A program made the position numbers and the translations under genes. The notes beneath the pieces were generated by a model, which saw only the letters and a program-made list of their open reading frames with translations, did no database searches and was not told where the DNA came from. Shown here piece by piece: positions 812 to 39,158 of a stretch of 64,000 bases of DNA. The DNA lies in the IMG/VR virus record IMGVR_UViG_3300043788_000114, positions 1 through 64,000 of that record; one strand, 5' to 3'. Origin of the DNA: a virus. Every line of letters begins with the position of its first letter. Position 1 is the stretch's first letter.

Positions 812-844
812 GGTGAAAAATGGCGAATTATTGTGGAGGATACA

Positions 845-910
845 GGGGTGTCGAGCGTTGCCACGCTCAGCTTTCGCCAGTCCATCTCAGGAGGATGGCC
901 ATGACACCCC
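845..910 (+). promoter_or_regulatory. Structured translational leader of the HNH-AP2 gene (copy 1 of 3)
   Basis: Outer helix P1 pairs GGGGTGTC (845-852) with GACACCCC (903-910), so it contains the third base of the start codon at 901 and the next codons. P2 follows at once: GAGCG (853-857) with CGCTC (864-868). P3 pairs CCATC (882-886) with GATGG (894-898) and holds the Shine-Dalgarno AGGAG in its loop. Copies with the same layout but different helix sequences precede the endonuclease genes at 41036 (reverse) and 61574. This predicts an initiation region closed until P1 and P3 open. Confidence 0.75.
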
Positions 911-1809
911 TTCAATCGAGATTACCATCGATATTTGGCTGCATATGTCGTGACGAACACTGTCTGATCCCTCGCGGAAAATGCCACTGCGGTTGCGGAA
1001 AAGATACGCCGATAGCGAAAAAGACAAGAAAAGAACGCGGTGATGTTAGGGGATACCCGCATAAATATATTCTTGGCCACACGAGAAATGTTGGACACCG
1101 CCCCTTTCTTCCAGCAGGCATGTGCGTGTGTCGCGATCCAAATTGCACAATACCATTTGGTTTTTGCCACTGCGGATGTGGTCAGAAAACAAATATTGCG
1201 CCAAATTCTGATACGAAATCTTATTGGATTAAGGGTTTGCCAATTCCATTTCTTCTTGGTCACCATCGTAGGGAAATTCCAATTGCTGAAGATGCCGCGC
1301 CATTCAAAATCAACGGCTTCTATTGTAGATTGATTCCACTAACGCAGGGATTGCATGTAATCATTTGGGAGGCAGACTACAAATACTTAATGCACTGGAA
1401 GTGGTTTGCTGTTTGGGATGAGAATGCAAGATCGTTCTATGCTGGACGCCAAATAAGGGAGAAAAAAGGGAAACAATACACGCAATACATGCATCGGCAG
1501 CTTCTTGGTCTTGGAAAAGGCGATAAGCGACTAGGAGATCACGCAAACGGCAACACCCTAGACTGCCGCAGAGACAATCTTCGCTATGCAGGCTACGACG
1601 GCAACGCTCGTAATAGGAAAAAGCAACGCAACAATACGTCTGGTTTTAAGGGAGTTTCGCTAGATAGAGATACGGGGTTATATTCAGCAAATATAAGGGT
1701 CAACGGGGTATTGATTTATCTCGGGAGAAGGGGTTCTGCGCGCTTAGCTCACGAACTATATTGCTTTGCATCCAAATCGCTCCATGGAGAATTTTCTCGT
1801 GTACAGTGA
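901..1809 (+). CDS. HNH homing endonuclease with AP2-type DNA-binding domain
   Basis: A protein of 302 residues. It begins with two similar Cys-rich zinc-binding repeats (CICRDEHC and CHCGCG at about 14-33; CVCRDPNC and CHCGCG at about 75-94). An HNH_3-type nuclease core follows (YMHRQLLG near 186, then DHANGNTLDCRRDNLR near 213-228). It ends in an AP2-like three-stranded DNA-binding domain (about 245-300). Free-standing HNH-AP2 genes are known selfish homing endonucleases. The frame is open up to 820, but the ATG at 901 is chosen because AGGAG lies 8-10 bases upstream and all three leader-bearing genes here begin Met-(Thr/Ala)-Pro. Base composition is more AT-rich than its neighbours. The gene splits the packaging region between the candidate small subunit and terL. 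Confidence 0.9.
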   Translation: MTPLQSRLPSIFGCICRDEHCLIPRGKCHCGCGKDTPIAKKTRKERGDVRGYPHKYILGHTRNVGHRPFLPAGMCVCRDPNCTIPFGFCHCGCGQKTNIAPNSDTKSYWIKGLPIPFLLGHHRREIPIAEDAAPFKINGFYCRLIPLTQGLHVIIWEADYKYLMHWKWFAVWDENARSFYAGRQIREKKGKQYTQYMHRQLLGLGKGDKRLGDHANGNTLDCRRDNLRYAGYDGNARNRKKQRNNTSGFKGVSLDRDTGLYSANIRVNGVLIYLGRRGSARLAHELYCFASKSLHGEFSRVQ

Positions 1810-1858
1810 GCGCATCGCATTGCAAAACTTAAACTACTTCGCATCCTCTGAAGGATGG

Positions 1859-3958
1859 ATGCCGGTTTACCACACCTTCGACGAGATCAGGAACTTCACA
1901 GCCTACATCAATAAAATCGTCAAGCCGATGGAGTCCAACTCCAAAAGCACCTACTACGGTCTCGTCGAGCCGATCACTGAAAAGCGCAGACAAGAAATAT
2001 ACCGCTGGATCGAGAACGAGCAAATTCTTTGCGGCCTCGATTATGGATATTGGCGTGACAATTACGCCTACGTCGTGAACGAAGGTGGACAGGTCGTAAA
2101 GTTCAAGAACAGGCGCTCGCAGGATGTGTTCGACTCCGTTGTCGCGATGCTAGAAGAGCAGGAGGCGGGCATACAGATACTCACGCTGAAGGCTCGTCAG
2201 GTGGGCATCACTACGCTGGTCGCTTTGATGTTTATTCACAGGATGCTTTTCGTCCCGAACACGCTCGCCGTCATGGCCTCGGTGCAAAAAGAGAAGTCGG
2301 AAGAGATCGAAGTTAAGCTCAACACGGCTTACGAAATGTGTCCTTTCTGGCTGAAGCCAATGAGAGAGCCGAAGAGGAGCTTTTCGAACGGATCGCGCCT
2401 CAACATCGAATCTGGAATGCAACCGAAGGGAATTGCGCAGGGAAAAACGCCAACGCTAATTCACATTTCCGAGATCGGGCTGATCCCGAATCCGCACAAT
2501 GTGATCGAAGAAGGACTTCTCCCGGCCACGCACTCGAACAAAAACCTGTTCATGGTATTCGAAGGAACCGGCTCCGGCAACGTTGGATGGTTCCCAGACT
2601 TCTGGCGCTCGCAGAAGAGAGACTGGCCGCTCGGGCTCGCCAGAATGTGCCCGGTATTCATTTCGTGGCCGCTCGCAACCGATCTGTACCCTCAAGCAGA
2701 CTGGCTAAGACAGCATCCTGTTCCAGCGGGATTCTACGAAAAGAGGACCGAGGCAACCAAGGCTCACATTTCTCGGTGCGAATCGTATATCCGCAACACT
2801 CCTTACCTTTCGAAAGTCGTCGGATCAAGCTACCGCGTGCCTATCGAGCAACAATGGTTCTGGGAATTTGAGTGGCGTCAAGCAAAGGAAAGACATTCCC
2901 TGTTCCAGCACGCCGCGCGGCTCCCGGCAGACGATTTTGAGGCTCTCACGGGAGAACACGATAGCGTCTTTGATCAAGAAAAAATCATGGAGATCGAGGA
3001 CCACATTTACGAAATCAAAACAGATGGGTCCAAGTCGCGGCGGAAACCGGTGCAGGCTTACGCAATCACTGGTCACTCGATTGACGAGGAGTTCGAGCCG
3101 GAGGATTCGCAGATCGATCCTTATGAAGAGGTGATCCACCTGATCTGGAGATCGCATCGTGGCGAGCGTTACGATTGGGAATTAGTTCCGCTCCGTCCGT
3201 TCGACGAGGAAAATGAGAATGAGACTCTGGACAAACTTCTGGTCTTCGAGCCGCCGAAAAAAGGAGAACTCTACAGTTGCGGTGTGGACACGGCGCACGG
3301 CCTCGGCAAAGAGGATGAAGATCGTTTTTGCGCATCGATGACGCGCGTTTCAAGTGGATCAGGCTCCGACGTTCAATCCTGTGAACTCACTTCAAATCGC
3401 TTCTCCCCAGCGCAGGCCGTTCCGTTCCTTGCCGCAATAGCAACGTGGTACGGACAGGGATCAGGGCACTATCGCGGCGTCAAATTCTCCATCGAACAGG
3501 TTGAAGGCCCCGGCGACACGTGCCAGAACCAATTAAAGATTATGGGTTTTTCATGGCACCACACTCCGGGAAGGCTCGATGGCAAGAAGATCAAAGACGA
3601 AAACCGGCACCGTGAAGGTTGGTACTCTAACAAAACGACCGTGCCGATTCTCATGGACCGTTTCGTTGAGGCTGTGAATGGCGGCTGGTACGTTCCTCAG
3701 TCCAAATGGCTGATCGAGGAATTGAAGACGCTCGAACGTCACACGGTGGACGGTGGCAGGGACAAGATGGTTCACCAGAAAAGTAAACACGACGACAGAG
3801 TGCGTGGCGCTGCGCAGAGCTATTTGAATATGCACACCTACGACGATCTTGCAATGCGCAGTCAAAGGCGCTACGCTGTCCCACATAAGAAAAAGCATGA
3901 CCCCAACGAAGGCGTTTGCATGGCGAACGCTTTCTCTGTGGGCGACTGGAACGAATGA
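1859..3958 (+). CDS. terL: Terminase large subunit (ATPase and nuclease DNA-packaging motor)
   Basis: Drives ATP-dependent DNA translocation into the prohead and cuts the concatemer. Numbering from the 1859 start (699 residues): Walker A-like KARQVGITT at about 111-119, Walker B-like LIHISEIG at about 200-207, then an RNase H-fold nuclease with Asp477 (CGVDTAHG), Glu546 (IEQVEG) and an Asp pair at 645-646 (HDDRVRG). The frame is open further up to an ATG at 1766, inside the end of the upstream endonuclease gene. I choose 1859 because GAAGG lies 5 bases ahead and it avoids the overlap. A nuclease-domain relative lies at 5746-6456. The family assignment is secure; the start is not. Confidence 0.93.
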   Translation: MPVYHTFDEIRNFTAYINKIVKPMESNSKSTYYGLVEPITEKRRQEIYRWIENEQILCGLDYGYWRDNYAYVVNEGGQVVKFKNRRSQDVFDSVVAMLEEQEAGIQILTLKARQVGITTLVALMFIHRMLFVPNTLAVMASVQKEKSEEIEVKLNTAYEMCPFWLKPMREPKRSFSNGSRLNIESGMQPKGIAQGKTPTLIHISEIGLIPNPHNVIEEGLLPATHSNKNLFMVFEGTGSGNVGWFPDFWRSQKRDWPLGLARMCPVFISWPLATDLYPQADWLRQHPVPAGFYEKRTEATKAHISRCESYIRNTPYLSKVVGSSYRVPIEQQWFWEFEWRQAKERHSLFQHAARLPADDFEALTGEHDSVFDQEKIMEIEDHIYEIKTDGSKSRRKPVQAYAITGHSIDEEFEPEDSQIDPYEEVIHLIWRSHRGERYDWELVPLRPFDEENENETLDKLLVFEPPKKGELYSCGVDTAHGLGKEDEDRFCASMTRVSSGSGSDVQSCELTSNRFSPAQAVPFLAAIATWYGQGSGHYRGVKFSIEQVEGPGDTCQNQLKIMGFSWHHTPGRLDGKKIKDENRHREGWYSNKTTVPILMDRFVEAVNGGWYVPQSKWLIEELKTLERHTVDGGRDKMVHQKSKHDDRVRGAAQSYLNMHTYDDLAMRSQRRYAVPHKKKHDPNEGVCMANAFSVGDWNE

Positions 3959-5074: not shown

Positions 5075-5749
5075 ATGAAGTTTATCCGTCTCACTAAGCG
5101 CCATAACGAGCACGAGCGATGCCTCGTTTTATGGACTCCGTGGATGACAGTCGTGTTCGACTTTGGTTCTGTGCAGTGCAGAGGAACCGACGAGTTCGAA
5201 CTGGTGATCAAATATCGCGCGTGGGGTCCTGTTTTCTACTGGGGAAACCGCGACATTGAGAAGTTGGGCGAGCGGAACAAGTTCGACAGTTTCCAGTTCG
5301 CCCGCATTCAGCCGCGTTACGCAGAACTTCGTAAGAAGCGTATCGATGACCGCGACTTCTACGAAATCCGGGAACAACTCGTCCGTCAAGGCAAGCGGAA
5401 AAACCCTGCCAACATGACCTATGCCGAGCGCCATGCGGCGACGATGGATGCGGTGAAAACGATGGAGTTCAGCAACAACTTCGTCCACCTGATGACGACG
5501 CCAGTAGCTAAACTTGCCTTGGAGCGTGGCGAGATTGTGACGGACGACGTGACAGGCGAGGTGTTAACGGAGAAGATTTACGACGAGCACGCAGAAAAAA
5601 GCCTAAAACTACCAGTCCGCAACATGGGGATTTTGGGATTCAAAAAAGCAAAGGACCGAGACGGTTACGAGGCAATATGCGTACCGGGCATGGAGCGTCG
5701 GCAAATGGCGACGAGCGAAGATTTGAAGATGATCGGAGGCGGAGAATGA
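5075..5749 (+). CDS. Hypothetical protein
   Basis: A 224-residue protein. The ATG at 5075 follows GAGG and lies after the previous gene's stop; the longer reading from 5045 would overlap it. The N-terminal half has alternating hydrophobic and aromatic residues (ERCLVLWTPW, VVFDFGSVQC), and the C-terminal half is charged. The stop overlaps the next start by four bases. No family recognised. Confidence 0.75.
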   Translation: MKFIRLTKRHNEHERCLVLWTPWMTVVFDFGSVQCRGTDEFELVIKYRAWGPVFYWGNRDIEKLGERNKFDSFQFARIQPRYAELRKKRIDDRDFYEIREQLVRQGKRKNPANMTYAERHAATMDAVKTMEFSNNFVHLMTTPVAKLALERGEIVTDDVTGEVLTEKIYDEHAEKSLKLPVRNMGILGFKKAKDRDGYEAICVPGMERRQMATSEDLKMIGGGE

Positions 5750-6456
5750 ATAGGCGATCCCTTTTCAAGTTCTTTGGTATCGGAGTGGCGACGGCTGTGG
5801 TTGCGCCTAATTTCCTAGTTGAAACAAAGATGCGTAAACTCGATAAAGTAGTCAGCAGGAGGACAAATATCCCATCGCCATCGATATGCGGCGATATGTA
5901 CGAGCGGCCCCGCAAAGGATACGATTATAGTATCGGCGTGTACGTCGGAGACGAGATAAGCAGTCTTGATCCTTCCTGTATATCGATAATGCGCAAGGGT
6001 AACGGTAATGAATCAGATGTGCAAGCAGCCGAATTTATATACGGGCAGATGAGCGTGCTCGCATTAGTCGAACAGGTTGCATATTGGGCCAAGTGGTACG
6101 GCGCTAAGTGCAAGGATTCAAGAGGTCCACTAATAGTGATTGAACAGGTACAAGGGTATGGAGACCTTTGTCAAGCACAGTTGAAGATCGCAGGAATGAC
6201 ACGTTTTCATCGTGCCGCAGGGTATATTCCAAACAAGCCGCCAATGGTCAGAGATGGGTGGTATAGCACAAGGATGTCCACCCCACTTATTTTCTACAGA
6301 TTTTTTGAAGCGCTTGAGAATGGCTGGTACCGACCGAATTCAGAGACACTGAAGGACTGTCTGAAGCAGTACCCGCCAGAGGATTCAAGAAGAGGATGCC
6401 TCGCAGCGGCGGCGCAGTCTTACGTAGGCGCTCATGGATTGGAGCGTCGAGCATGA
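5746..6456 (+). CDS. Stand-alone, probably inactive terminase nuclease-domain paralogue with Tat-like N-terminus
   Basis: A 236-residue protein. Residues about 60-230 match the nuclease half of the large terminase encoded 2 kb upstream: IEQVQGYGDLCQAQLKI against IEQVEGPGDTCQNQLKI, DGWYSTRMSTP against EGWYSNKTTVP, and AAQSY near both C-termini. The ATPase half is absent. The first catalytic Asp is Tyr66 here and the Asp pair is replaced (RRGCLAAAA), while the Glu in IEQV stays, so cleavage is unlikely. The N-terminus MNRRSLFKFFGIG followed by a hydrophobic stretch resembles a twin-arginine export signal. It could be a decoy or regulator of packaging or an exported protein. Both neighbours overlap it by ATGA. 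Confidence 0.75.
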   Translation: MNRRSLFKFFGIGVATAVVAPNFLVETKMRKLDKVVSRRTNIPSPSICGDMYERPRKGYDYSIGVYVGDEISSLDPSCISIMRKGNGNESDVQAAEFIYGQMSVLALVEQVAYWAKWYGAKCKDSRGPLIVIEQVQGYGDLCQAQLKIAGMTRFHRAAGYIPNKPPMVRDGWYSTRMSTPLIFYRFFEALENGWYRPNSETLKDCLKQYPPEDSRRGCLAAAAQSYVGAHGLERRA

Positions 6457-7151
6457 GCAAATGGATCAATGTCACGAAGGCACTTCCCGACACTGAAACA
6501 CCGCGTATCGTCGGATGGATGGCTGGGCGAGCTGAGCCGTGCTGGTTTTCTGACGGCAAGTGGTACCTCTACGATGGCACGTTCTTTCTCACCGAAAAGA
6601 GCAGAATCCACACCGTAACGCATTGGATGGCCATCGACTGGATGACGTCAATGGAGTGGCCAGCGCACGGACCGGGTATCGTCAACCGATTACGGCACCA
6701 CGTGGGGCGATTGACGCGAGGAGCGTCAAACATGGCACGCGACATGCGACCGGGAGGATGGGGAAGCAAAGCGCAGCTTTCAAAAAAGCCTGTTTTCTAT
6801 CGCGACTCCTCCGGTAAGATCATGAGCGGGATGCCAGAGAATGTTCCGACACCGCGTGGATTGGAAAGGATAGTCTGCGGTTCCGCTATCGAAGCTGAGC
6901 GATACTCCGAAATGCAGCGTCGGCAAGAACGCGTCGAGCATGGTCGCGAATCCGAAAGGCGCGGGGCTATCGAAGCGGAGTTCCAAGCCGAAATTCGCTC
7001 GGAGATGCGGACAAAAATGGCGAATGCGAGGAATCCAATCAACCGCGAATTCATGCGGCGGGCGCTCGAACGGAACGCACAGATAGGCGATCCGACCGCT
7101 TACGAACGCGAGAGCTACCTACACGCAGAAGGATTCGAACAAGGCCATTGA
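6453..7151 (+). CDS. DUF551-like protein with charged helical tail
   Basis: A 232-residue protein from the ATG overlapping the previous TGA. The first 65 residues fit the small DUF551 pattern common in phages: it opens with SKWINVTKALPDTE, has a central W/Y-rich strand, and ends with VTHWMAIDW. A linker follows, then a long charged helix (about 150-215, rich in Arg, Glu and Met). The role of DUF551 proteins is unknown. Confidence 0.7.
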   Translation: MSKWINVTKALPDTETPRIVGWMAGRAEPCWFSDGKWYLYDGTFFLTEKSRIHTVTHWMAIDWMTSMEWPAHGPGIVNRLRHHVGRLTRGASNMARDMRPGGWGSKAQLSKKPVFYRDSSGKIMSGMPENVPTPRGLERIVCGSAIEAERYSEMQRRQERVEHGRESERRGAIEAEFQAEIRSEMRTKMANARNPINREFMRRALERNAQIGDPTAYERESYLHAEGFEQGH

Positions 7152-7530: not shown

Positions 7531-7558
7531 TCGGGTAGCAAAATATCTTAAAAATTGC

Positions 7559-7588
7559 TTGACAATGTAGTGCGCAATGCACTACGTT
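7559..7588 (+). promoter_or_regulatory. Promoter with palindromic operator for the ribbon-helix-helix gene
   Basis: A perfect TTGACA -35 box (7559-7564) is followed 18 bases later by a weak -10, TACGTT (7583-7588). Between them lies a perfect inverted repeat, GTAGTGC (7567-7573) and GCACTAC (7579-7585), with a 5-base centre. The gene downstream encodes a ribbon-helix-helix protein, a family that binds such short palindromes, so autorepression is the simple reading. Confidence 0.65.
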
Positions 7589-7593
7589 TAGCC

Positions 7594-7761
7594 ATGGAAC
7601 GAAGCCCTACAAGTTTCCGCTTATCGACTGTGGCTTTGGAGTTGATTGTCAAACTCTCAAAGGCGCTTGGAGTTTCCCAGACCTCTATCGTGGAGATGGC
7701 GATTCGGGAACTGGCCAAGCGGAACAAGATAAAACTCAGTGGCAAGGAAAGCTCTGTCTAG
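7594..7761 (+). CDS. Ribbon-helix-helix (CopG/Arc-like) DNA-binding protein
   Basis: A 55-residue protein from the ATG at 7594. A short beta segment (SFRLST) is followed by two helices (ALELIVKLSKALG and QTSIVEMAIRELAKR), the typical layout of ribbon-helix-helix repressors, which bind DNA as dimers through the strand. The perfect palindrome in its own promoter is the probable operator. The upstream TTG at 7555 would place the operator inside the gene and is rejected. No toxin partner gene is obvious next to it. Confidence 0.75.
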   Translation: MERSPTSFRLSTVALELIVKLSKALGVSQTSIVEMAIRELAKRNKIKLSGKESSV

Positions 7762-8905: not shown

Positions 8906-11068
8906 TTGAGTTGCACGACGGACTGGTTGGGAGCCAGTTCGAACCGGGAGAGAACGAAGGGTTGGTTGCCGGACTCTACAGAGACGATTCGTTGGCAAGT
9001 CCCAAACTGGGAGTCCTCCGCAAGCGTCAAGGTCGCTTGGGTTGAGGAGCAGATCGCCGAAGGTGAAGGATACCTTTCCGGCCAAGCGTGCTACCGCGAT
9101 CTGAACAAGAATCTACGTGTTTTCGATGGAATCTTCAAAGATAAAACCAAATCCTCACTGCTCACTAATCAGCTAAAATACAACGTTCGTAAATTCTGCG
9201 AAACGTTGGCCGAAGTCCGTGAGATCGCCGGATTTTCGAGTGACGTTCCATCCTACAAAAAGATGGCCGAGATGCTTACAAAGGTGAGCAAGGCCGTCTA
9301 TCTGGAATCCAATTTTCCGTACCAAATTCTCAAGGTTCTCCAATACGCCACGGTGATGGGAATCGGATACTTATGGCCGAAAGTCAGAACATCGGAATAC
9401 GGTTCCGGACCGCGCGAGATGGTGTTCGACGCTCTTGGCCTGCTCGACGTGGTTCCTGTTCAAATTCCTGCGCGGAGCAACGATGTGCAGGACGCTTACG
9501 CCGTCACGATCTACGACTATATGCCCATCGCGGAGGCGAGTGCTCGCTTCCCACTTTTTTATGGCCAACTCCAGACGGTCGGAAGAAACAACTACAAATC
9601 TCTTATCCAAGCTCAGCGTCAGGATTTCAATGCGACGTGGCGCTACGGACAGATCGGCGAAACACAGAGCAGGAGTTTCGGAAACCTGTACACGGAAATC
9701 CGCTACACGTTTATTCGCGACATGCGCGTGAACACGACGGGCTTAGAAATGAAGTGCGGTGATCCGGGAACCACATGGTTCTACAAGGTTCCTTACATCG
9801 GTCAGGAAATATTCGGCGGCATGAGAAACGGCAAGCCATATATGCGCCCCGCCATGGTCGAAGACTGCCGGATTTATCCAAATCTGCGATTGATCATCAC
9901 ATCTTCCGGGCTCGACAAGCCGATGTACGATGGCACATCTTTCGAGTGGGACCCAAAGATTCCGATTATCCAGTACACGGTAGATGATTGGTCTTGGGAA
10001 GCTCTTGGAAGATCGCTTGTTGGCGATGTGGCTTCCATCGAAACTACGATTCGCAAGCACGAGAGGAAAATCGATCAGGTAATCACCGCGCGCCTGAATC
10101 CGCCAATGGGTTACGATCTCGATACTAACGGCGGACAAAAGGTTGAACACTTCGACATTTTCGAAGAAGATGTGCGCCTCGGTCTGGCTGGAGGAGAGCC
10201 AAAAAAGAGTTTCCAGTCGCTCCTGCCTGACGAAGTTGCCGTAGGTCAAGACAATTGGACATTTTTGAAATATCTTGGAGAAAAAGAACTCGCCCAACTT
10301 GGCTTGAACGATGTAGGAAACCTCGCCAACATCAAGATGAATCTCGCCAACGACACGGCGGACAAGATGCTCGAATCTATTGGTCCAATCGCCAAGGGTA
10401 TCGCGATGAGGATCGAGAAAGCTAACAAACGTGTCGGCGAGAGAATGAAGTATCTGATCCCGCAATTCTTCGACGCCAACAGATTGGTCGAGTACGTCGG
10501 TCCGGATAACGTGGCGAAAGAGATGTTCGATTACGACCCGGACACACTCGTTCCGAGCCACTTGCCAGACGAGTTCATTGGTGGAAAGTATCCGGAGACT
10601 CCATCCAGATATGACCGGCTCACACGGGCGAAATTCTTCGTCAAGAAAATCCGCCTCGTCTCCGTTCCAAGCACGCTGTTGAAGATCACGCAGATGCAGG
10701 AGCAACTGAAGTTCCTCAACCTGAAGCGTGGTGGCGCTCCAATTTCGTGGGAGACGGTCTTCGAGAAGTTGGATATTGCTGATCCGAAGCGCGAGATCGA
10801 GAAGAATTTCAAGGAAGAAGTCGAGCTTCAGAAGATGAAGATTCTCGCTCAGATCGAGATCATGAAGATTTTGAAGAGCCTCGGTATTGATCCGTCGCAG
10901 CTTGGCGGAGGCGATGAAGGTGGGGGAGCTAAGCCAAAAGGCGGTGGTGGCGGCGGCGGTGCGCCGCACGCTGGGGGAAGGCCACCAAGTGGGCAGTCCG
11001 GGCCACGTGTGAAGCAAAAGGGCGCAGCCGGTGGTGCTCCTAGAACACTAATTTCGGAGAGCGGATGA
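8906..11068 (+). CDS. Portal protein (head-tail connector)
   Basis: A 720-residue protein forming the dodecameric ring through which DNA enters and leaves the head. The call rests on order (terminase, portal, scaffold, capsid), length and character: a mixed alpha/beta body, a long helical segment near residues 600-650, and a Gly/Pro-rich flexible tail (about 660-715). The annotated start is a TTG at 8906 with no clear ribosome site; other in-frame TTG codons follow at about 8927 and 8966, so the N-terminus is uncertain. The stop overlaps the next ATG. Confidence 0.82.
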   Translation: MSCTTDWLGASSNRERTKGWLPDSTETIRWQVPNWESSASVKVAWVEEQIAEGEGYLSGQACYRDLNKNLRVFDGIFKDKTKSSLLTNQLKYNVRKFCETLAEVREIAGFSSDVPSYKKMAEMLTKVSKAVYLESNFPYQILKVLQYATVMGIGYLWPKVRTSEYGSGPREMVFDALGLLDVVPVQIPARSNDVQDAYAVTIYDYMPIAEASARFPLFYGQLQTVGRNNYKSLIQAQRQDFNATWRYGQIGETQSRSFGNLYTEIRYTFIRDMRVNTTGLEMKCGDPGTTWFYKVPYIGQEIFGGMRNGKPYMRPAMVEDCRIYPNLRLIITSSGLDKPMYDGTSFEWDPKIPIIQYTVDDWSWEALGRSLVGDVASIETTIRKHERKIDQVITARLNPPMGYDLDTNGGQKVEHFDIFEEDVRLGLAGGEPKKSFQSLLPDEVAVGQDNWTFLKYLGEKELAQLGLNDVGNLANIKMNLANDTADKMLESIGPIAKGIAMRIEKANKRVGERMKYLIPQFFDANRLVEYVGPDNVAKEMFDYDPDTLVPSHLPDEFIGGKYPETPSRYDRLTRAKFFVKKIRLVSVPSTLLKITQMQEQLKFLNLKRGGAPISWETVFEKLDIADPKREIEKNFKEEVELQKMKILAQIEIMKILKSLGIDPSQLGGGDEGGGAKPKGGGGGGGAPHAGGRPPSGQSGPRVKQKGAAGGAPRTLISESG

Positions 11069-11865
11069 GGAAGGTATACATCTACGTTTTGAAACATCCG
11101 GAGACGTTTGAGATTCGTTACGTCGGGTTGACTCGTGCGCCACAGCGACGGTTGAACAACGAGATCAACTATCCCCATACAAAACACCTAGCGAATTGGA
11201 TGAACAGCCTTAAGATACTAAAGTTGAAACCCCTCATGGAGATCATAGAGGAATCGGTAGAAGGGGCTGCGGACGAAGCAGAACGACGCTGGATTGCAAA
11301 TTTTAGATCAAAAGGATGTCGACTGATCAATTACACAAGCGGCGGTGAAAATGGTTTCACGATGAGTGAAGAATTACGGGCCAAATTCCGCATACTCAAT
11401 AGCAGGAAGCGTCGCCCAATGTCCGATGAGCACAGGGCAAAGATTTCAGACTCCCTTAAAGGGAGAGAGTTGACACCGGGTAATGGAAAGTATTTTTCTG
11501 CGCTTAACATCAAGCGTAAGGGAATCCCCCTAAGAGAAGAGACGAAGGCGAAATTGAGAGAAATTGGTAGAGCGCAACTCAACGGCAAGTGGTTCGAGCG
11601 GTTCATAGAAGGGTGCCGGAATCGCAAACGCCCCTCAAAGTTCACTGACGAACAAAAGTCAGAAATCAAGTTCCTGATCTCAGAAGGGTACTCGCAAAAA
11701 ATTATTGCCGAAACATTTGGGATATGCATTGGCACCGTTTCGGATGCGAAGAGGGGGAAAATCTGGGCAAAAATAATACCAGCCACTTCCGCATCTATCG
11801 TTCCAGAATTTAAGAGTGTGCCACTCGTAAGAAACGAAAAAGGTCAGTACGAAAGAGCGGCATAG
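11065..11865 (+). CDS. GIY-YIG homing endonuclease with NUMOD3-like repeats
   Basis: A 266-residue protein. The N-terminal GIY-YIG nuclease domain shows VYIYVLKHP and RYVGLTRAPQRRL, with an acidic residue in the EAERRWIANF helix. NUMOD3-like DNA-binding modules follow (MSDEHRAKISDSLKG near 125, REETKAKLREIG near 160), then a helix-turn-helix (EIKFLISEGYSQKIIAETF). Composition is AT-richer than the portal gene. The ATG overlaps the portal stop, so the selfish gene is translated by coupling without breaking its neighbour. Confidence 0.9.
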   Translation: MRKVYIYVLKHPETFEIRYVGLTRAPQRRLNNEINYPHTKHLANWMNSLKILKLKPLMEIIEESVEGAADEAERRWIANFRSKGCRLINYTSGGENGFTMSEELRAKFRILNSRKRRPMSDEHRAKISDSLKGRELTPGNGKYFSALNIKRKGIPLREETKAKLREIGRAQLNGKWFERFIEGCRNRKRPSKFTDEQKSEIKFLISEGYSQKIIAETFGICIGTVSDAKRGKIWAKIIPATSASIVPEFKSVPLVRNEKGQYERAA

Positions 11866-11876
11866 CGGAGAAGTAT

Positions 11877-16496: not shown

Positions 16497-17354
16497 ATGC
16501 CTCTTCAGCAAGCTTTGCCGACATGGCTCGCGATCAACAACATGAATTCGGTGTCGCCGTCAGGCAATCTGGATACCCAGACCGGATTCCCTTACGAGGG
16601 CGGCGGATTGAATCCCGGCAACTACTTCGATCTGACCAACGAGGAAGCGGCCAACGCCTCCGACACAGCCAATGGACTTCTCTTCTCCGGACGGTACCGC
16701 TACGTTCAGGTTGACTCGGGAGCCACGGCGGCGAATGTGAAGACAGGCACGGTCGGCTACATCCGCTCCGGATCGAGCGTTGCCAGTGCAGTCACCACGA
16801 ACGCGGGCACCGGTCTGACGAACGGAAGCTACCAAGTGGCGGCAAATCCGGGCAATGGTGGAACTGGCGCGATCCTCGGCATCAACGTTGTCGGTGGCGT
16901 GATTGTCGGAAATCCGACAGTAGTTGCTGCGGGCTACGGATACGTCTCACCGCCAACCTTCACTCTCACGGCTCTCGGCGGCTCGGGCGCGGCAGTTGTT
17001 GCGCAGTTGGGTGTCAGCCAGAATGTGGTCACGAGCGCCGACATCGCGTTGACACCGGCTGCTGGAAACGCCGGTATCGGTCCGGTTCACCCGGTGGTGT
17101 TCCTCAACTCGATCACGCCCGGAAACTTCGGGTTCGTGCAGGAGAGCGGAACGGCCACAGTTCTCGCGGCCTCGGGCGACACGCAGGCGCAAAGCCAGAA
17201 TGCCCTGCCATCGACCGGTTCGGCTGGAGCAATGGTGGCGTCGTCGGCGTCCTACAGTATTCTCAACTTGGGTATCGTGATCGATCCACTGACCACGCCG
17301 CTCGCCAACACGCCGTTCAAGATTCAGATGACCACGCCAGCGTTCCAAGACTAA
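16497..17354 (+). CDS. Head-associated or decoration-like virion protein
   Basis: A 285-residue protein with AAGGAGA before the ATG. The middle (about 98-160) is a Gly/Val-rich beta module with GYGYVSPPTFTL; a module with the same spacing is found in the connector candidate at 18142. The rest is Ala/Gly/Thr-rich with few charges, as in capsid decoration proteins. Its position right after the capsid gene supports a head role. Confidence 0.65.
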   Translation: MPLQQALPTWLAINNMNSVSPSGNLDTQTGFPYEGGGLNPGNYFDLTNEEAANASDTANGLLFSGRYRYVQVDSGATAANVKTGTVGYIRSGSSVASAVTTNAGTGLTNGSYQVAANPGNGGTGAILGINVVGGVIVGNPTVVAAGYGYVSPPTFTLTALGGSGAAVVAQLGVSQNVVTSADIALTPAAGNAGIGPVHPVVFLNSITPGNFGFVQESGTATVLAASGDTQAQSQNALPSTGSAGAMVASSASYSILNLGIVIDPLTTPLANTPFKIQMTTPAFQD

Positions 17355-33642: not shown

Positions 33643-35148
33643 ATGGGAACATATTCTTGGCTTACGTTTCTCACCGCACGCCAGCAGCTTGCTGCGCGGC
33701 AGTACGACCCCAATAACCTCTTCTGGGCCGATGCCGAGAACGGAATTTCTATTCAGCAAGCGTTGAGGATGTTCAACGTTCTCACCTTCACGTGGAAAAC
33801 CAACTTTGCTTTCTCCTCCGCAAATCTGTGGAACTCGCTCGGGCTGATCGCCGACTCGCCCCGCCTCCGGACCATCACCGACACCTACTGCTACACGGAC
33901 ATGGAGTACAAGCTCCTCGAACCGCCAACCGGTGGAGTGTGGACGGGCACCACGCAGTTCTCGATCTCCGACCTCTCTCAGGCTCTCCAGCGGCGTAGGG
34001 ATGAAATGCTTCAGGTGTCGAACTGCAACCAGAGTTTGATGCCCAATATCCCGCTGACGCCGAACACGACAGTGACCAACCTTCCCGACACGGTGATCGA
34101 CGTCGCCCGGACCCGATATTTGCCATTACAGACGAGCACCACCGGAACCGCCTTGCAGGGCGTGAATGTGGTCAACGTTATATCGGTCACCGGGATCGCC
34201 ATCGGTCAACTTGTCGTCGGGAACGGAATACCTTATCCGACCACGGTCGCCGCAGTGGGAAGCGCCTCGATCACACTTTCGCAGTTGACGACCGGGCCAG
34301 TCTCGGGGTCGCTGGGATTCTTCACCGCGAGCACTCTCTACCGGGACGACACCATTGCGCAGGAATTCTACGAAGCACCGCTCTACCAGCAGGACCCCGG
34401 AACGCCGACAACTTTCAGCCTTTCGTCCGAGCCGCCCCTGTCGTGGGCCGTTGACATCCCGCCAGATCAGGCCGGGGTGTACGAATCGGTTGTGCTTCAG
34501 TCAGGAGCGGCCTTTGCGCCGCCCGCAAGCACGCTTATAGGCATCCCGGATGACTTCGCATGGGTTCTGGAGTGGGGAGCCCTTGCTGACCTGCTCGGGC
34601 GCGAATCTGAGGCCACAGACAGGGACCGTGCGGCATATTGCCTGCGCCGGTACCAAGACGGGCTCAACCTGCTCGTAAAGACGCCGTGGATCATGCTCGG
34701 CAAGGTGAATGGAGAGGCTGTCAATATCGATTCTATCGAGGCCACAGATCGCTACGATCCGGAGTGGGATTCAAACCCGAACGGTTTCGGTCCGGTGATC
34801 GTGACAGGAGGGATAGATTTCCTCGCCGCTCCGGTAGGCTCAGGAGTTGGCGTGACTGTACTGGGCAACGCCCCAGTCCCAGTTGCGGATGGCGACTTTG
34901 TGCAGGTGAGCCGCTCTGATTGGGACACCGTGCTTGATCTGGCGCAGTCGTTCAATGTTTTCAAGCAAGGCGGAGCGGAGTGGAAGGCCGCTCTTCAATT
35001 GGAGGCGAGAGCGATTCAGGCGTGCGCTGCTGAGAACACAAGAATCAAGTCGTATGGTTGCTTCTCCGACATCCTCGTCCAGCGTGGTCAGGTACAGGAA
35101 CGTAACCAAGAGCGATACAAAACTGCGAACGAGAAGAAGGCTCAGTAA
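33643..35148 (+). CDS. Virion structural protein
   Basis: A 501-residue protein starting 8 bases after the previous stop; no strong ribosome site. A helical N-terminus (LTARQQLAARQY) is followed by a beta insert around 180-230 with alternating Val/Thr, and a helical C-terminal region ending in a charged tail. Its size, lack of Cys/enzymatic motifs and position next to the giant protein suggest a neck or tail component. The stop overlaps the next ATG by one base. Confidence 0.62.
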   Translation: MGTYSWLTFLTARQQLAARQYDPNNLFWADAENGISIQQALRMFNVLTFTWKTNFAFSSANLWNSLGLIADSPRLRTITDTYCYTDMEYKLLEPPTGGVWTGTTQFSISDLSQALQRRRDEMLQVSNCNQSLMPNIPLTPNTTVTNLPDTVIDVARTRYLPLQTSTTGTALQGVNVVNVISVTGIAIGQLVVGNGIPYPTTVAAVGSASITLSQLTTGPVSGSLGFFTASTLYRDDTIAQEFYEAPLYQQDPGTPTTFSLSSEPPLSWAVDIPPDQAGVYESVVLQSGAAFAPPASTLIGIPDDFAWVLEWGALADLLGRESEATDRDRAAYCLRRYQDGLNLLVKTPWIMLGKVNGEAVNIDSIEATDRYDPEWDSNPNGFGPVIVTGGIDFLAAPVGSGVGVTVLGNAPVPVADGDFVQVSRSDWDTVLDLAQSFNVFKQGGAEWKAALQLEARAIQACAAENTRIKSYGCFSDILVQRGQVQERNQERYKTANEKKAQ

Positions 35149-38100
35149 TGGCACTAAAATTCAGAGCGCTCGACATTACGTCCCCCGTCAATCGCCTAAA
35201 AGCAGGCTTTGTCGCAATGGCCTGTAATGTTCGAGCTTATTTGGATGGCGGTTTTGCTCTCCGCAATTCGCTGACCCCGCCGTTGGTTTTAACCAACGCA
35301 GCATCGAGTCAAGTTAGCGCGGGAACTACCGGGCAAACAGGAGTAGGAGCCGCGTGGAATAACCCCGCGAATATCTTCGACACAGGAAGTGTCAATTTCA
35401 CAAATCTCCTCCTCGGAGGCGGCAACCCAACAGTATCGGAAATTCTCAATGTCACCGATCTAGGATTTGCGATCCCCGGCAGCGCGACGATTACAGGAAT
35501 CCAGTTTCAACTCCAAAGCCTTCCAGCCCTTGGCCATGGCGTCGCTATTACCTTTCAGCCAACACAAAATGGGGCGAACGCTGGAACTCCGACGACTCAA
35601 ACGCTCGGTCCCGCGCCCGGTGGACCGGTAACCATCGGTGGGCCGGGTAATCTCTTTGGATTTGCGTGGACTCCGGCGTTGATCAATGGCGCGACCGGTT
35701 TAGGGCTGAATATATCCGGAGCAGGAGGAGCCGCTCATACCTCAGCGGCTTGTGAGCTAAACTCTCTCGTCGTCACAGTGTTCTACAACACGAACATGAC
35801 GCTCATTCTGCCTGCGCCGCCGCATTCAATTCGCAGATTAAACGACTCGACTCCTAACGGACCATCGTCCGGTTACGCTCTTGTCGTTGGAGCGGGAACG
35901 GACATTTATCTCAACTCGACACAAGTTGCTTCCGGACTCTCCGGCAATCAAATTTCGCTCATTCCTTTCCGCCCGAATGCTTCCGTGCAGCCGTGGATGT
36001 ACTGGGCTGATTCGGCAGCGATGGGCAACGTCACTCTGAATACTAAATACCTCATCAATGGCAAGCCGGTGAACTTCGTTTCAAACGGCATGGGCAAGAC
36101 ACGCTCCGATGGGTTGACGTACAAAATGGGAATCGAGGAACCGCAACTCGCCCCCATTATTTCCACCGCTCCATCCAGCGTATCCGTTGGTGGTTTGTTG
36201 CAGGCAACTGACATTCCATGGACCAACTATCTCGGGCAGAACCCCGGATATAACTACGGAGAGTCGAACGGTCCACCGAATCCGGGAAGTCCAAACCCGA
36301 TAGATGGAACTCCGCCGTTTATTGTCGACGTGGCCAATGCCTCCACAGTGACAGTCACGGCCATCACTGGAACCGCGACGATCAATGGTACGTCGGCAGT
36401 ACCGACGAGTCCCGGACCAACTCCGGGATCGACAAACCCCGGTGGTTACGTGCAAGTTGGAGGAGTAGTTCCGGGAACAGTTTCCGTTGTTGTTGGTGCG
36501 TTCACGGATGGAGATGGCAATGTAGTACCTCTCGGCGTAGCGCCGCTCTACATTACATCGGTCATCGATGTGGGTGGAAACATCGGAGTGGCAATTCCCG
36601 TGCCATTTGGCGCTCAGCAGTTCCAGATTGGCATCAACTCCACGGGAAACACGTTCAATGCAAACTCGGGCTCTTTCCAGATCGAAGTTACGGTGACAAC
36701 GAATGCTCTGCCAACCGTCACATCGATTCTCGGCGACCTGACTTGCGCATATTTTGACGATTCGCCAACCTCCGGTCCAGTAGCTTCGTATATCTGGAAG
36801 AATCCGGATGATCCCGGAGGCTCGGGACCAACGCGCTCTGTCTCTGATGCGGTAGGCACAACGACAGGTGACTCCTTCATCTTCGATGCCACATTCACGG
36901 CTGGAATTCCCGGACTACCGGGAATCGGCTCGCCCACTGTACCGATGCTGTGGACAGACCTCAATCCTGATTCCGTCGCCGTAGGTTCCAATCCGATCTT
37001 TGCCGCACCACTGACGAAAACAAATCCGACGAACACACAGTTCGCCAACTTCAACTTTTGTCTTACAGGGAATATCTACTTCCCGTCTGCCGGTCTATTC
37101 ACGCTCGTCCTCACGAGCCACGATGATGTGATATGGGGAATCGGCGGCGGCGTGTCGCTGGTATCTGCCGTGGCGTCCGGCGTAGGCGAGGGTGGTGGCG
37201 TGGCAATCTCTGGATATGGCCAGACGATCACCGTGGTTGGTGGTTATCCGCTCCTTCCGAGACAAATCTACACGAGCGGATTGGGAGGAAACTACGCACA
37301 GACAACGGTAGTCGTGAGCGTTCCAGCGGCAGGCATTTACCCAATCGAACTCGACTTTGACTACTGGTTTCACTCAGGAAGAATTCTTCTGCTTGAGGGA
37401 TCGGCCACTGCTGGCGGTCCGCCGACGATCATCCCGCCTCTTCCGGCGAGCGTTAGGCAGGAGACGCAATATCGGTACGTGTACAGGTCATCGGCCACAG
37501 GAGCATTGTCGAATCCATCTCCGGAGTCAGCAGCCGAGACGGTGCCTGTCACGGCGAACACTGTCACGTCTTACTGGTCGCCCGATCCGCAGGTAGATGT
37601 TGTTGACTACTACCGCATCGATTCAGTGACATCGGATTTCACTTACGTCGCCACAGGACCTAACGACAATCTTGGACCGGGAGGAACGAATACACCGATC
37701 ACCGATTCCTTGCTGGACACTGAACTAGGATCGCAACTTCTAGAATTCGACAACTTCGAGCCATTCCCATCCATTGATCTTCCACAGAAGGGAATCTGTA
37801 ACGTCTCTGGCGGTGTCATCACATGGGTATCGGGCGGAGCTATCGGCGGAGCGTTTACAGGATTCAATATCCGCTGGCTGGGTGGAACAGTCATCCTCAT
37901 CGGCTCCCCTACGTCTCTTGCATATACACTGATCGCGCGACCAACATCGACGACGACGATCACGATTCCCGATGTTCCGGATGGAACGAATCTGGCTTAC
38001 GAGATTCCCGAACCAATTCTAGCCGCACAACCATTACCTTATGTTGACGGGCCTACGGACAATATCCCGTTTGCAAATGCAGTTGGCGATCCACTAAGAG

Positions 38101-39158
38101 GAGGAACTTTTTATTGGTCGAAGGGAAATAACCTAGACTCCGCTCCGGATACGAATCAGCAAGACATCACCGATCCGTCCGAAACTCTGAATAACTTGGC
38201 GATCACCACAGGCAAGGTGCTCTTGGGATCGATTAAGCGTTTCTGGGCCATCTTGCCCAACTTCTTCAATGCTCTGGCAACAGCTACCGGAACTTCAGGA
38301 TCAACATGGAGCACAAGGCTCACTTCAATCGACCGTGGCCTCTTTATCCCACGCTGCATCTGCGTCTCGGGCGGTGGAGGCGTGTTCTTCCGTGTCGATG
38401 ATGGGATTCATTACTCGCCATCAGGCATCTCGTCAAAGTCGATAACCGATGAAACGCTCTATCCGTTATTCCCGCATGAATCGCCCGGAGCAGGCGCTTC
38501 TTCCCCGCAGCCAATCACACGCAATGGAATCACAATCTATCCTCCAGACGATACGAAGCCGCAGCTACAGAAGATGGCATTCCAGAACGGGTATATGTAT
38601 TTTAAATATTCCGGAACGGACGGCAATCCTCACACGCTGGTATTCGATGAAGCTGCAATGGGATGGATATGGGACATAAAAAATCCGGAAGCGACATGCT
38701 ATGCGGCTAATGAGGGAGAAAGCATTCAAGGTACTCTAGTAGGATGTTTTGACGGATCGGTAAGACTTCTTTCGAGTGCTGGAACTGAGGTAGTGACGGG
38801 CACGGCTCTCACTGCCGCCATCGGCGGCGTGGGATGGAATCACATGTACGAGATCACCATCGAGTACGAATCCAAAGCAGCAGTGACATTGAGCTTCATC
38901 GCCGCCGATGTGAATAATGGAAGCTACGCCCCAAATCCTATTGTGCTTCCAGCAACAGCCGGTGGTCCGACGAAGTTCACCACGAAAGTGACTGCGAATA
39001 AGTGGCAACTACTACAGGCACAATTCCAGTCTGCCGATCCAGCGATGGCCATCTACCTAGAGGGTGTTTTCGGCAACGTAAAGGATTGGGGAACGACGGC
39101 AGGATACAGGCCGGTGAATTTCTTCATCCCTGCGGGAGGGGCCGGAGGTCAGCCATGA
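35148..39158 (+). CDS. Giant virion protein with PA14-like domain
   Basis: A 1336-residue protein. The start (FRALDITSPVNRLKAGF) is followed by beta-sandwich domains. A PA14-like domain is visible at about 610-760: an N-terminal strand region, then GLFTLVLTSHDDVIWGIGGG, and PIELDFDYWFHSGRILLL. Fibronectin-like strands (RYVYRSSATGALSNPSPESA) come next, and a C-terminal propeller-like region (FVFDGS-type repeats such as VGCFDGSVRLL). PA14 domains bind carbohydrates, so host-surface binding by a tail nozzle or fibre is plausible. The stop overlaps the next start by four bases. Confidence 0.7.
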   Translation: MALKFRALDITSPVNRLKAGFVAMACNVRAYLDGGFALRNSLTPPLVLTNAASSQVSAGTTGQTGVGAAWNNPANIFDTGSVNFTNLLLGGGNPTVSEILNVTDLGFAIPGSATITGIQFQLQSLPALGHGVAITFQPTQNGANAGTPTTQTLGPAPGGPVTIGGPGNLFGFAWTPALINGATGLGLNISGAGGAAHTSAACELNSLVVTVFYNTNMTLILPAPPHSIRRLNDSTPNGPSSGYALVVGAGTDIYLNSTQVASGLSGNQISLIPFRPNASVQPWMYWADSAAMGNVTLNTKYLINGKPVNFVSNGMGKTRSDGLTYKMGIEEPQLAPIISTAPSSVSVGGLLQATDIPWTNYLGQNPGYNYGESNGPPNPGSPNPIDGTPPFIVDVANASTVTVTAITGTATINGTSAVPTSPGPTPGSTNPGGYVQVGGVVPGTVSVVVGAFTDGDGNVVPLGVAPLYITSVIDVGGNIGVAIPVPFGAQQFQIGINSTGNTFNANSGSFQIEVTVTTNALPTVTSILGDLTCAYFDDSPTSGPVASYIWKNPDDPGGSGPTRSVSDAVGTTTGDSFIFDATFTAGIPGLPGIGSPTVPMLWTDLNPDSVAVGSNPIFAAPLTKTNPTNTQFANFNFCLTGNIYFPSAGLFTLVLTSHDDVIWGIGGGVSLVSAVASGVGEGGGVAISGYGQTITVVGGYPLLPRQIYTSGLGGNYAQTTVVVSVPAAGIYPIELDFDYWFHSGRILLLEGSATAGGPPTIIPPLPASVRQETQYRYVYRSSATGALSNPSPESAAETVPVTANTVTSYWSPDPQVDVVDYYRIDSVTSDFTYVATGPNDNLGPGGTNTPITDSLLDTELGSQLLEFDNFEPFPSIDLPQKGICNVSGGVITWVSGGAIGGAFTGFNIRWLGGTVILIGSPTSLAYTLIARPTSTTTITIPDVPDGTNLAYEIPEPILAAQPLPYVDGPTDNIPFANAVGDPLRGGTFYWSKGNNLDSAPDTNQQDITDPSETLNNLAITTGKVLLGSIKRFWAILPNFFNALATATGTSGSTWSTRLTSIDRGLFIPRCICVSGGGGVFFRVDDGIHYSPSGISSKSITDETLYPLFPHESPGAGASSPQPITRNGITIYPPDDTKPQLQKMAFQNGYMYFKYSGTDGNPHTLVFDEAAMGWIWDIKNPEATCYAANEGESIQGTLVGCFDGSVRLLSSAGTEVVTGTALTAAIGGVGWNHMYEITIEYESKAAVTLSFIAADVNNGSYAPNPIVLPATAGGPTKFTTKVTANKWQLLQAQFQSADPAMAIYLEGVFGNVKDWGTTAGYRPVNFFIPAGGAGGQP

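What the first reader, a model, noticed from the sequence alone, without database searches (positions are those of the whole stretch)
5746..6456. Second terminase nuclease domain, catalytically eroded, with a twin-arginine-like N-terminus
The protein matches the C-terminal half of the large terminase 2 kb upstream (IEQVxGxGDxCQxQLKI, GWYS, AAQSY) but lacks the ATPase. The first Asp is Tyr66 and the Asp pair is gone. The N-terminus reads MNRRSLFKFFGIG plus a hydrophobic stretch. A decoy of the packaging nuclease, a packaging regulator, or an exported protein reusing the fold are all possible. A duplicated terminase end might also come from gene conversion by the endonuclease next to terL.
Basis: partly seen in the sequence, partly recalled or inferred. 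Interest (0 to 1): 0.8.

Follow-up and report, generated by a model that had tools for sequence, protein, structure and literature searches.

The report
Exported-looking, catalytically dead packaging-nuclease mimic
This phage carries, besides its DNA-packaging motor, a second, stand-alone copy of the motor's cutting domain that has lost its catalytic residues and gained an export-type signal, and related phages carry pieces of other virion proteins behind the same signal at the same place, which suggests a swappable set of virion-protein mimics.

Summary
Window 5746-6456 encodes a 236-aa protein homologous to the nuclease half of the terL at 1793-3958 (BLASTP E 4e-29). It lacks the ATPase; motif-I Asp is Tyr66, the Asp pair is gone, the Glu remains. 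A predicted model overlays terminase nucleases (T4 gp17, Z 20.9). It is not a recent copy of the local terL: seven distinct stand-alone proteins form one clade (100/100), occur patchily among the phages and are under purifying selection (dN/dS about 0.2).

All begin with MNRRSFFKFLGIGAATAAVAPKxLAE-like sequence, a Tat-signal-like leader that clears the NCBIfam Tat cut-off in several relatives but not in the window copy. The new finding is that this leader heads other small genes, nearly all in the same slot directly upstream of one conserved gene between terL and portal. Their cargoes come from a portal segment or, more weakly, a head-decoration-like protein; some relatives have the slot empty. 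So this is a cargo-swapping slot for leader-tagged virion-protein mimics.

Function is inferred: most likely binding without cutting, as a decoy for whatever recognises TerL or portal (host sensors, or a rival's motor). Gene conversion by the nearby endonuclease is not supported.

The parts
5746..6456 (+). Stand-alone, catalytically eroded TerL nuclease-domain paralogue with Tat-like leader (236 aa)
5746..5823 (+). Leader MNRRSLFKFFGIGVATAVVAPNFLVE, shared with other cargo genes in related phages
5824..5895 (+). Variable linker between leader and nuclease-like domain; aligned with gaps and little identity in relatives
5896..6453 (+). RNase H-fold nuclease-like domain: Tyr66 in place of motif-I Asp, Glu133 kept, Asp pair and preceding segment lost
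1793..3958 (+). terL of this phage (start codon not settled); complete nuclease motifs GVDTA, IEQ, KHDDR; homologue of the feature
5075..5749 (+). Upstream neighbour of the slot (224 aa, no family match); in L013, L019, L014-L016, L074 it is followed directly by the 6453 gene (empty slot)
6453..7151 (+). Downstream neighbour of the slot, DUF551-like N-terminus (sub-threshold), matched in 79 of the compared loci; overlaps the feature's stop (ATGA)
8909..11068 (+). Portal protein (719 aa as searched); its homologues match the cargo of the L004/L010/L009 leader genes
16497..17354 (+). Decoration-like structural gene; weak match to the cargo of L006/L009/L037/L073 (TPGNYGFIQ part) and to the GSGY cargo of L030

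Best explanation
Shown: the gene belongs to a single-origin family of stand-alone TerL nuclease-domain paralogues, most of them without the metal-binding acids, each headed by a conserved Tat-signal-like leader and placed in a slot upstream of a conserved gene between terL and portal; in related phages the same leader and slot carry other cargoes, of which the portal segment is clearly virion-derived and the decoration-like ones probably so. Inferred: the protein works by binding, not cutting. It is a mimic that presents TerL surfaces to something that normally recognises TerL, most likely a host immune sensor of the packaging machinery (as Avs proteins recognise TerL and portal) or the packaging motor of a co-infecting phage, and so blunts that response. 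The leader is inferred to send the mimic, or what it has bound, to the membrane or across it. The cargo is swapped between phages because hosts or rivals differ.
For: Homology and fold. Loss of the cleavage machinery with the rest kept: of 60 TerL columns conserved at 90% or more, 32 are kept in at least 6 of 7 stand-alone proteins; motif-I Asp is kept in 1/7, first Asp of the pair in 1/7, second in 0/7, the Glu in 7/7. Selection: dN/dS about 0.22-0.24 in the least saturated pairs. One clade, patchy occurrence. Fast divergence: window-L020 45% against 84% for their TerL nuclease domains. One slot; empty slot. Leader-cargo link: 9 of 15 leader ORF clusters but 1 of 183 other ORF clusters in the terL-portal interval match larger proteins outside it. 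Sensors known for these proteins: Avs1-4 recognise TerL or portal (PMC12931631); SpbK and Avs4 bind portal (PMC12847820).
Against: No interaction, localisation or phenotype is tested. A Tat signal would take the protein out of the cytoplasm, where TerL sensors and packaging motors are; leaderless portal-segment ORFs in L006, L038, L039 and L081 suggest cytosolic action for that cargo. L055/L058/L113 keep motif-I Asp, Glu and one Asp, so weak catalysis is not excluded there. The zinc-ribbon, L042 and L112 leader genes have no, or only a short, virion match. The virion enrichment is partly one family counted six times.
Confidence: 0.35

Rival explanations
1. Packaging accessory or regulator: the dead nuclease domain joins or competes with TerL subunits or sits at the portal, tuning cutting or motor assembly of the same phage, with the leader acting as a membrane tether for assembly.
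For: TerL-like fold and many conserved TerL residues; co-directional position between terL and portal, overlapping the next gene; other cargoes in the slot are portal- and decoration-related.
Against: Absent from close relatives with nearly the same TerL (empty slot), so not needed for packaging; diverges much faster than the cognate TerL and does not track it.
Confidence: 0.2
2. Exported effector reusing the RNase H fold: a Tat-secreted protein acting in the periplasm or outside, for example in superinfection exclusion.
For: RR.F[FL]K leader kept at protein level (pN 0.07-0.20) while synonymous sites have diverged; TIGR01409 passes its cut-off for L020, L006, L009 (first gene), L010 and L071; Ala at the expected signal-peptidase -1 position in 10 of 17 leaders inspected by eye.
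Against: The window copy is not reported by TIGR01409 or PF10518 and has Val at -1. TerL is not part of the mature virion (general knowledge), so a surface decoy for incoming virions does not explain a TerL cargo.
Confidence: 0.2
3. Interference with co-infecting phages: dominant-negative fragments of TerL or portal poison the assembly of related competitors.
For: Cargoes are partial versions of multimeric assembly proteins and differ between close relatives.
Against: Self-poisoning would have to be avoided; no experimental sign; the leader would remove the fragment from the assembly site.
Confidence: 0.15
4. Recombination debris: the terL-portal interval is a hotspot where a small Tat-signal ORF became fused to pieces of neighbouring genes, without function.
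For: Variable interval of roughly 0.4-6 kb with an HNH gene next to terL in the window; mosaic linkers, for example portal-like YTVDDWEW in L020.
Against: Single-origin clade over divergent phages, intact frames, dN/dS about 0.2, conserved slot.
Confidence: 0.08

Closest known systems
Large terminase nuclease domain (T4/RB49 gp17, G20c TerL, RNase H fold)
   Same: Same fold over residues about 45-236 (Z 20.9 to 3cpe), sequence homology to this phage's own TerL, Glu of motif II kept
   Different: No ATPase, no motif-I Asp, no Asp pair; carries a Tat-like leader; separate gene next to an intact terL
Twin-arginine signal peptides (TIGR01409, PF10518)
   Same: RR.F[FL]K motif, Ala/Gly-rich hydrophobic stretch, polar end; several relatives score above the TIGR01409 cut-off
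   Different: Window copy below detection; phage gene with virion-derived cargo; export untested
Triggers of Avs and SpbK immune sensors (TerL, portal), described in PMC12931631 and PMC12847820
   Same: The clearly identified cargoes of the slot, TerL nuclease domain and portal segment, are parts of exactly these sensed proteins
   Different: The slot genes carry fragments, not whole proteins; no sensor of this host is known and no interaction was tested
TerL of Tunturiibacter phages Tunturi_1/2 (Acidobacteriota host)
   Same: Only hit among 50,697 phage records (27.7% over 71%)
   Different: A complete TerL; no stand-alone copy annotated between its terL and portal

Membership tests
Large terminase (TerL) | RNase H-fold nuclease domain homologous to TerL | tested here: met
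   BLASTP E 4e-29; Foldseek and VIA top hits are terminase nucleases
Large terminase (TerL) | N-terminal packaging ATPase domain | tested here: not met
   236-aa protein; alignment starts at TerL residue 484
Large terminase (TerL) | Catalytic acids: motif-I Asp, Glu, C-terminal Asp pair | tested here: not met
   Tyr66; Glu133 kept; Asp pair replaced by Arg-Gly
Tat substrate | Twin-arginine motif before a hydrophobic stretch at the N-terminus | tested here: met
   MNRRSLFKFFGIGVATAVVAP; R3 and R4 invariant in the seven stand-alone proteins
Tat substrate | Score above the curated Tat-signal model cut-off | tested here: inconclusive
   Window copy: no hit. L020 18.2, L006 17.8, L009 24.9, L010 22.7, L071 18.6 bits against cut-off 16.7; PF10518 below its cut-off in all ten
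Tat substrate | Tat-dependent export | not testable with these tools
   needs an experiment; no SignalP or TatP at hand
Immune-sensor decoy (Avs/SpbK type) | Binds the sensor without activating it | not testable with these tools
   no host genome or sensor identified
Product of local terL duplication or gene conversion | Closest relative is the phage's own terL | tested here: not met
   Stand-alone proteins form one clade, 100/100; 40% to own TerL, 42% to the TerL of L023

The most novel reading that the evidence does not exclude
A phage lineage keeps a dedicated slot of leader-tagged mimics of its own virion and packaging proteins (TerL nuclease, portal segment, head decoration), swapped between phages like cassettes, that act as decoys or relocators for host sensors of these proteins: a new anti-immune strategy.
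Probability: 0.22. Interest if true: 0.87.

Novelty: new variant of a known kind. Interest (0 to 1): 0.64.

Why it matters
TerL and portal are among the phage proteins that bacterial immune sensors are known to recognise. A slot in which phages trade leader-tagged, catalytically dead or truncated copies of such proteins would be a direct, testable form of molecular mimicry, and would explain why pseudo-terminase genes persist. Even if the decoy reading is wrong, a conserved Tat-like leader on packaging-protein fragments implies an unknown step at the membrane in late infection.

Tried and rejected
Pfam and PHROGs on the window protein: no significant family. PDB sequence search with the protein or with a 45-row profile: no terminase found; only the fold search shows it. 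A first viral-contig scan with the single sequence found nothing; scans with terL and with the family alignment did. Genome contigs: only one TerL, in an actinobacterial MAG. Phage records: no relative of the window protein except Tunturi TerL, none of the decoration-type leader gene. Portal model was poor (pLDDT 56), so the portal domain from which the cargo comes is not assigned. Profile comparison A2 against A3 is circular and not used. Decoration homology is weak (hhalign 83%, 20 columns; hmmsearch best E 0.002 with the two parts scored separately) and is given as probable only. The leader as a DNA recombination element was rejected: synonymous sites in it are diverged. Gene conversion by the HNH endonuclease was rejected. 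Paper searches for stand-alone or inactive terminase nuclease paralogues and for phage Tat signals gave nothing matching; subscription papers are not covered.

Full report
What is there. Window 5746-6456 (+) is an intact 236-aa ORF starting at an ATG that overlaps the upstream stop (ATGA) and is preceded by GGAGG. The contig is a 138.5-kb IMG/VR virus record; the protein has exactly two matches in it, itself and the terL nuclease region, and a search of the held pieces of the whole contig with a leader profile found no second leader gene in it.

Homology and fold. BLASTP against the C-terminal half of the terL at 1793-3958 gives 35% identity over 201 aa, E 4e-29. An AlphaFold2 model from a 45-row alignment has mean pLDDT 80 and pTM 0.76; the first 45 or so residues (leader and linker) are poorly predicted. 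Foldseek's best PDB hits are RB49 and T4 gp17 and G20c terminase nucleases, and VIA-align gives Z 20.9 to T4 gp17, 2.4 A over 172 residues, for model residues 45-236. PDB sequence searches find nothing.

Active site. In 38 aligned TerL nuclease domains the motif-I Asp, the Asp pair and the His before it are invariant. Across the seven stand-alone proteins the motif-I Asp is Y, E, Q, D, E, E, E; the first Asp of the pair is kept only in L055; the second Asp, the following Arg and the His are lost in all; the Glu of IEQ is kept in all. Of 60 TerL columns conserved at 90% or more, 32 are kept in at least six of seven and 12 are lost in all. So the cutting machinery is removed and the rest of the fold is maintained. 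The L055 type retains Asp, Glu and one Asp and might still bind metal.

Family and evolution. Relatives were fetched with terL (80 loci), with a leader DNA pattern and with the family alignment. Distinct stand-alone proteins: window, L020, L023, L055 (identical in L058 and L113), L077, L097, L109. In a tree with 56 TerL domains they form one clade (100/100); their carriers' TerLs lie in different parts of the TerL tree. Between phages they diverge faster than TerL: window-L020 45% against 84%. dN/dS in the least saturated pairs is 0.22-0.24. The gene is thus old, mobile or often lost, and under purifying selection. A recent local duplication or gene conversion does not fit: identity to its own TerL is 40%, no more than to other phages' TerL.

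The leader. Residues 1-26 are shared far beyond the TerL-type genes. The consensus MNRRSFFKFLGIGAATAAVAPKxLAE has the twin-arginine motif and a moderately hydrophobic, Ala/Gly-rich stretch. TIGR01409 reports it above its cut-off in five of ten proteins tested, not in the window copy; PF10518 matches stay below its cut-off. Protein conservation with diverged synonymous sites shows that selection acts on the peptide, not on a DNA element. Many leaders end with Ala at the expected cleavage position; the window copy has Val and may stay uncleaved (inference).

Other cargoes. L004/L005, L010 and the second leader gene of L009 carry a segment homologous to portal residues about 404-462 (E down to 1e-11 or better). 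L006, L009 (first gene), L037 and L073 carry a domain whose end resembles the TPGNYGFIQ part of a decoration-like structural gene (window 16497-17354 and orthologues; weak). L030 carries a GSGY repeat also found in that gene (E 5e-4); L071 looks similar by eye. The linker of L020 contains YTVDDWEW, as in the portal motif YTVDDWAWEP. L112 shares 18-19 residues with very large proteins, one of which follows it on its own contig. L042 has no match. In L006, L038, L039 and L081 a leaderless ORF sits just upstream of the same conserved gene; the L006 one matches portal at E 7e-4, the others resemble it.

One slot. In the window, L020, L023, L055/L058/L113, L077, L097, L109, L004/L005, L006, L009, L010, L042, L071 and L073 the leader gene is the gene before a homologue of window 6453-7148. 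In L013, L019, L014-L016 and L074 the upstream neighbour (window 5075-5749 homologue) is followed directly, after about 100 bases, by that gene: an empty slot. A divergent group (L030, L032, L034, L066) has a weaker leader just after the 6453 gene; L037 and L112 are exceptions in position. In the terL-portal interval 9 of 15 leader ORF clusters, but 1 of 183 other clusters, match larger proteins encoded outside the interval (Fisher p 5e-11). Six of the nine are the TerL type and share descent, so the p-value overstates independence; the fair statement is one strong TerL family, one strong portal family and one or two weak decoration families behind one leader.

How it most likely works. Shown: homology, fold, loss of catalytic residues, conserved leader, slot, cargo exchange, selection. 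Inferred: binding without cutting. TerL and portal are recognised by Avs1-4 (PMC12931631); [quoted passage not shown] A slot trading fragments of such proteins fits decoys, with the leader as relocator. The main difficulty is compartment: a Tat substrate leaves the cytoplasm. Alternatives are a packaging accessory, an exported effector, interference with rivals, or debris; the last is disfavoured by selection and single origin.

Novelty. The gene is a pseudo-enzyme paralogue of a known domain. The leader-cargo slot was not found in the papers searched, which is weak evidence because subscription papers are not covered. I rate it a new variant of a known kind, with a categorically new reading kept open.

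Noticed in passing
window 820-1809: HNH endonuclease gene ending at the start of terL (phrog_99, E 1.7e-27).
   Followed up: partly
window 11065-11868: ORF after the portal whose start reads like a GIY-YIG endonuclease (by eye, not tested).
   Followed up: no
L112 9599-9297 (minus strand), contig G001: Leader gene far from terL that lies before a 1200-aa ORF (L112 7646-4047) and shares an 18-residue stretch with it; 19 residues also with window 35106-39155.
   Followed up: partly
L038, L039, L081, and L006 13721-14104: Leaderless small ORF (MSAQDxIIIYPDM...) with a portal-like segment just upstream of the conserved 6453-type gene.
   Followed up: partly
L032 12859, L034 4803, L066 11913: Cys-rich (zinc-ribbon-like) proteins with a weak Tat-like leader just after the 6453-type gene; relatives without the leader exist.
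   Followed up: no
L100 220 and L102 3667: Tat-like leaders on small ORFs in virus contigs without a matching terL or portal; cargo unmatched.
   Followed up: partly
L042 3920-4552: The terL frame is interrupted inside the nuclease domain after about 154 codons; may be a sequencing error or a real break.
   Followed up: no
window 7555-7761: Small transcriptional-regulator-like ORF (phrog_3887, E 1.3e-6) between the slot and the portal.
   Followed up: no
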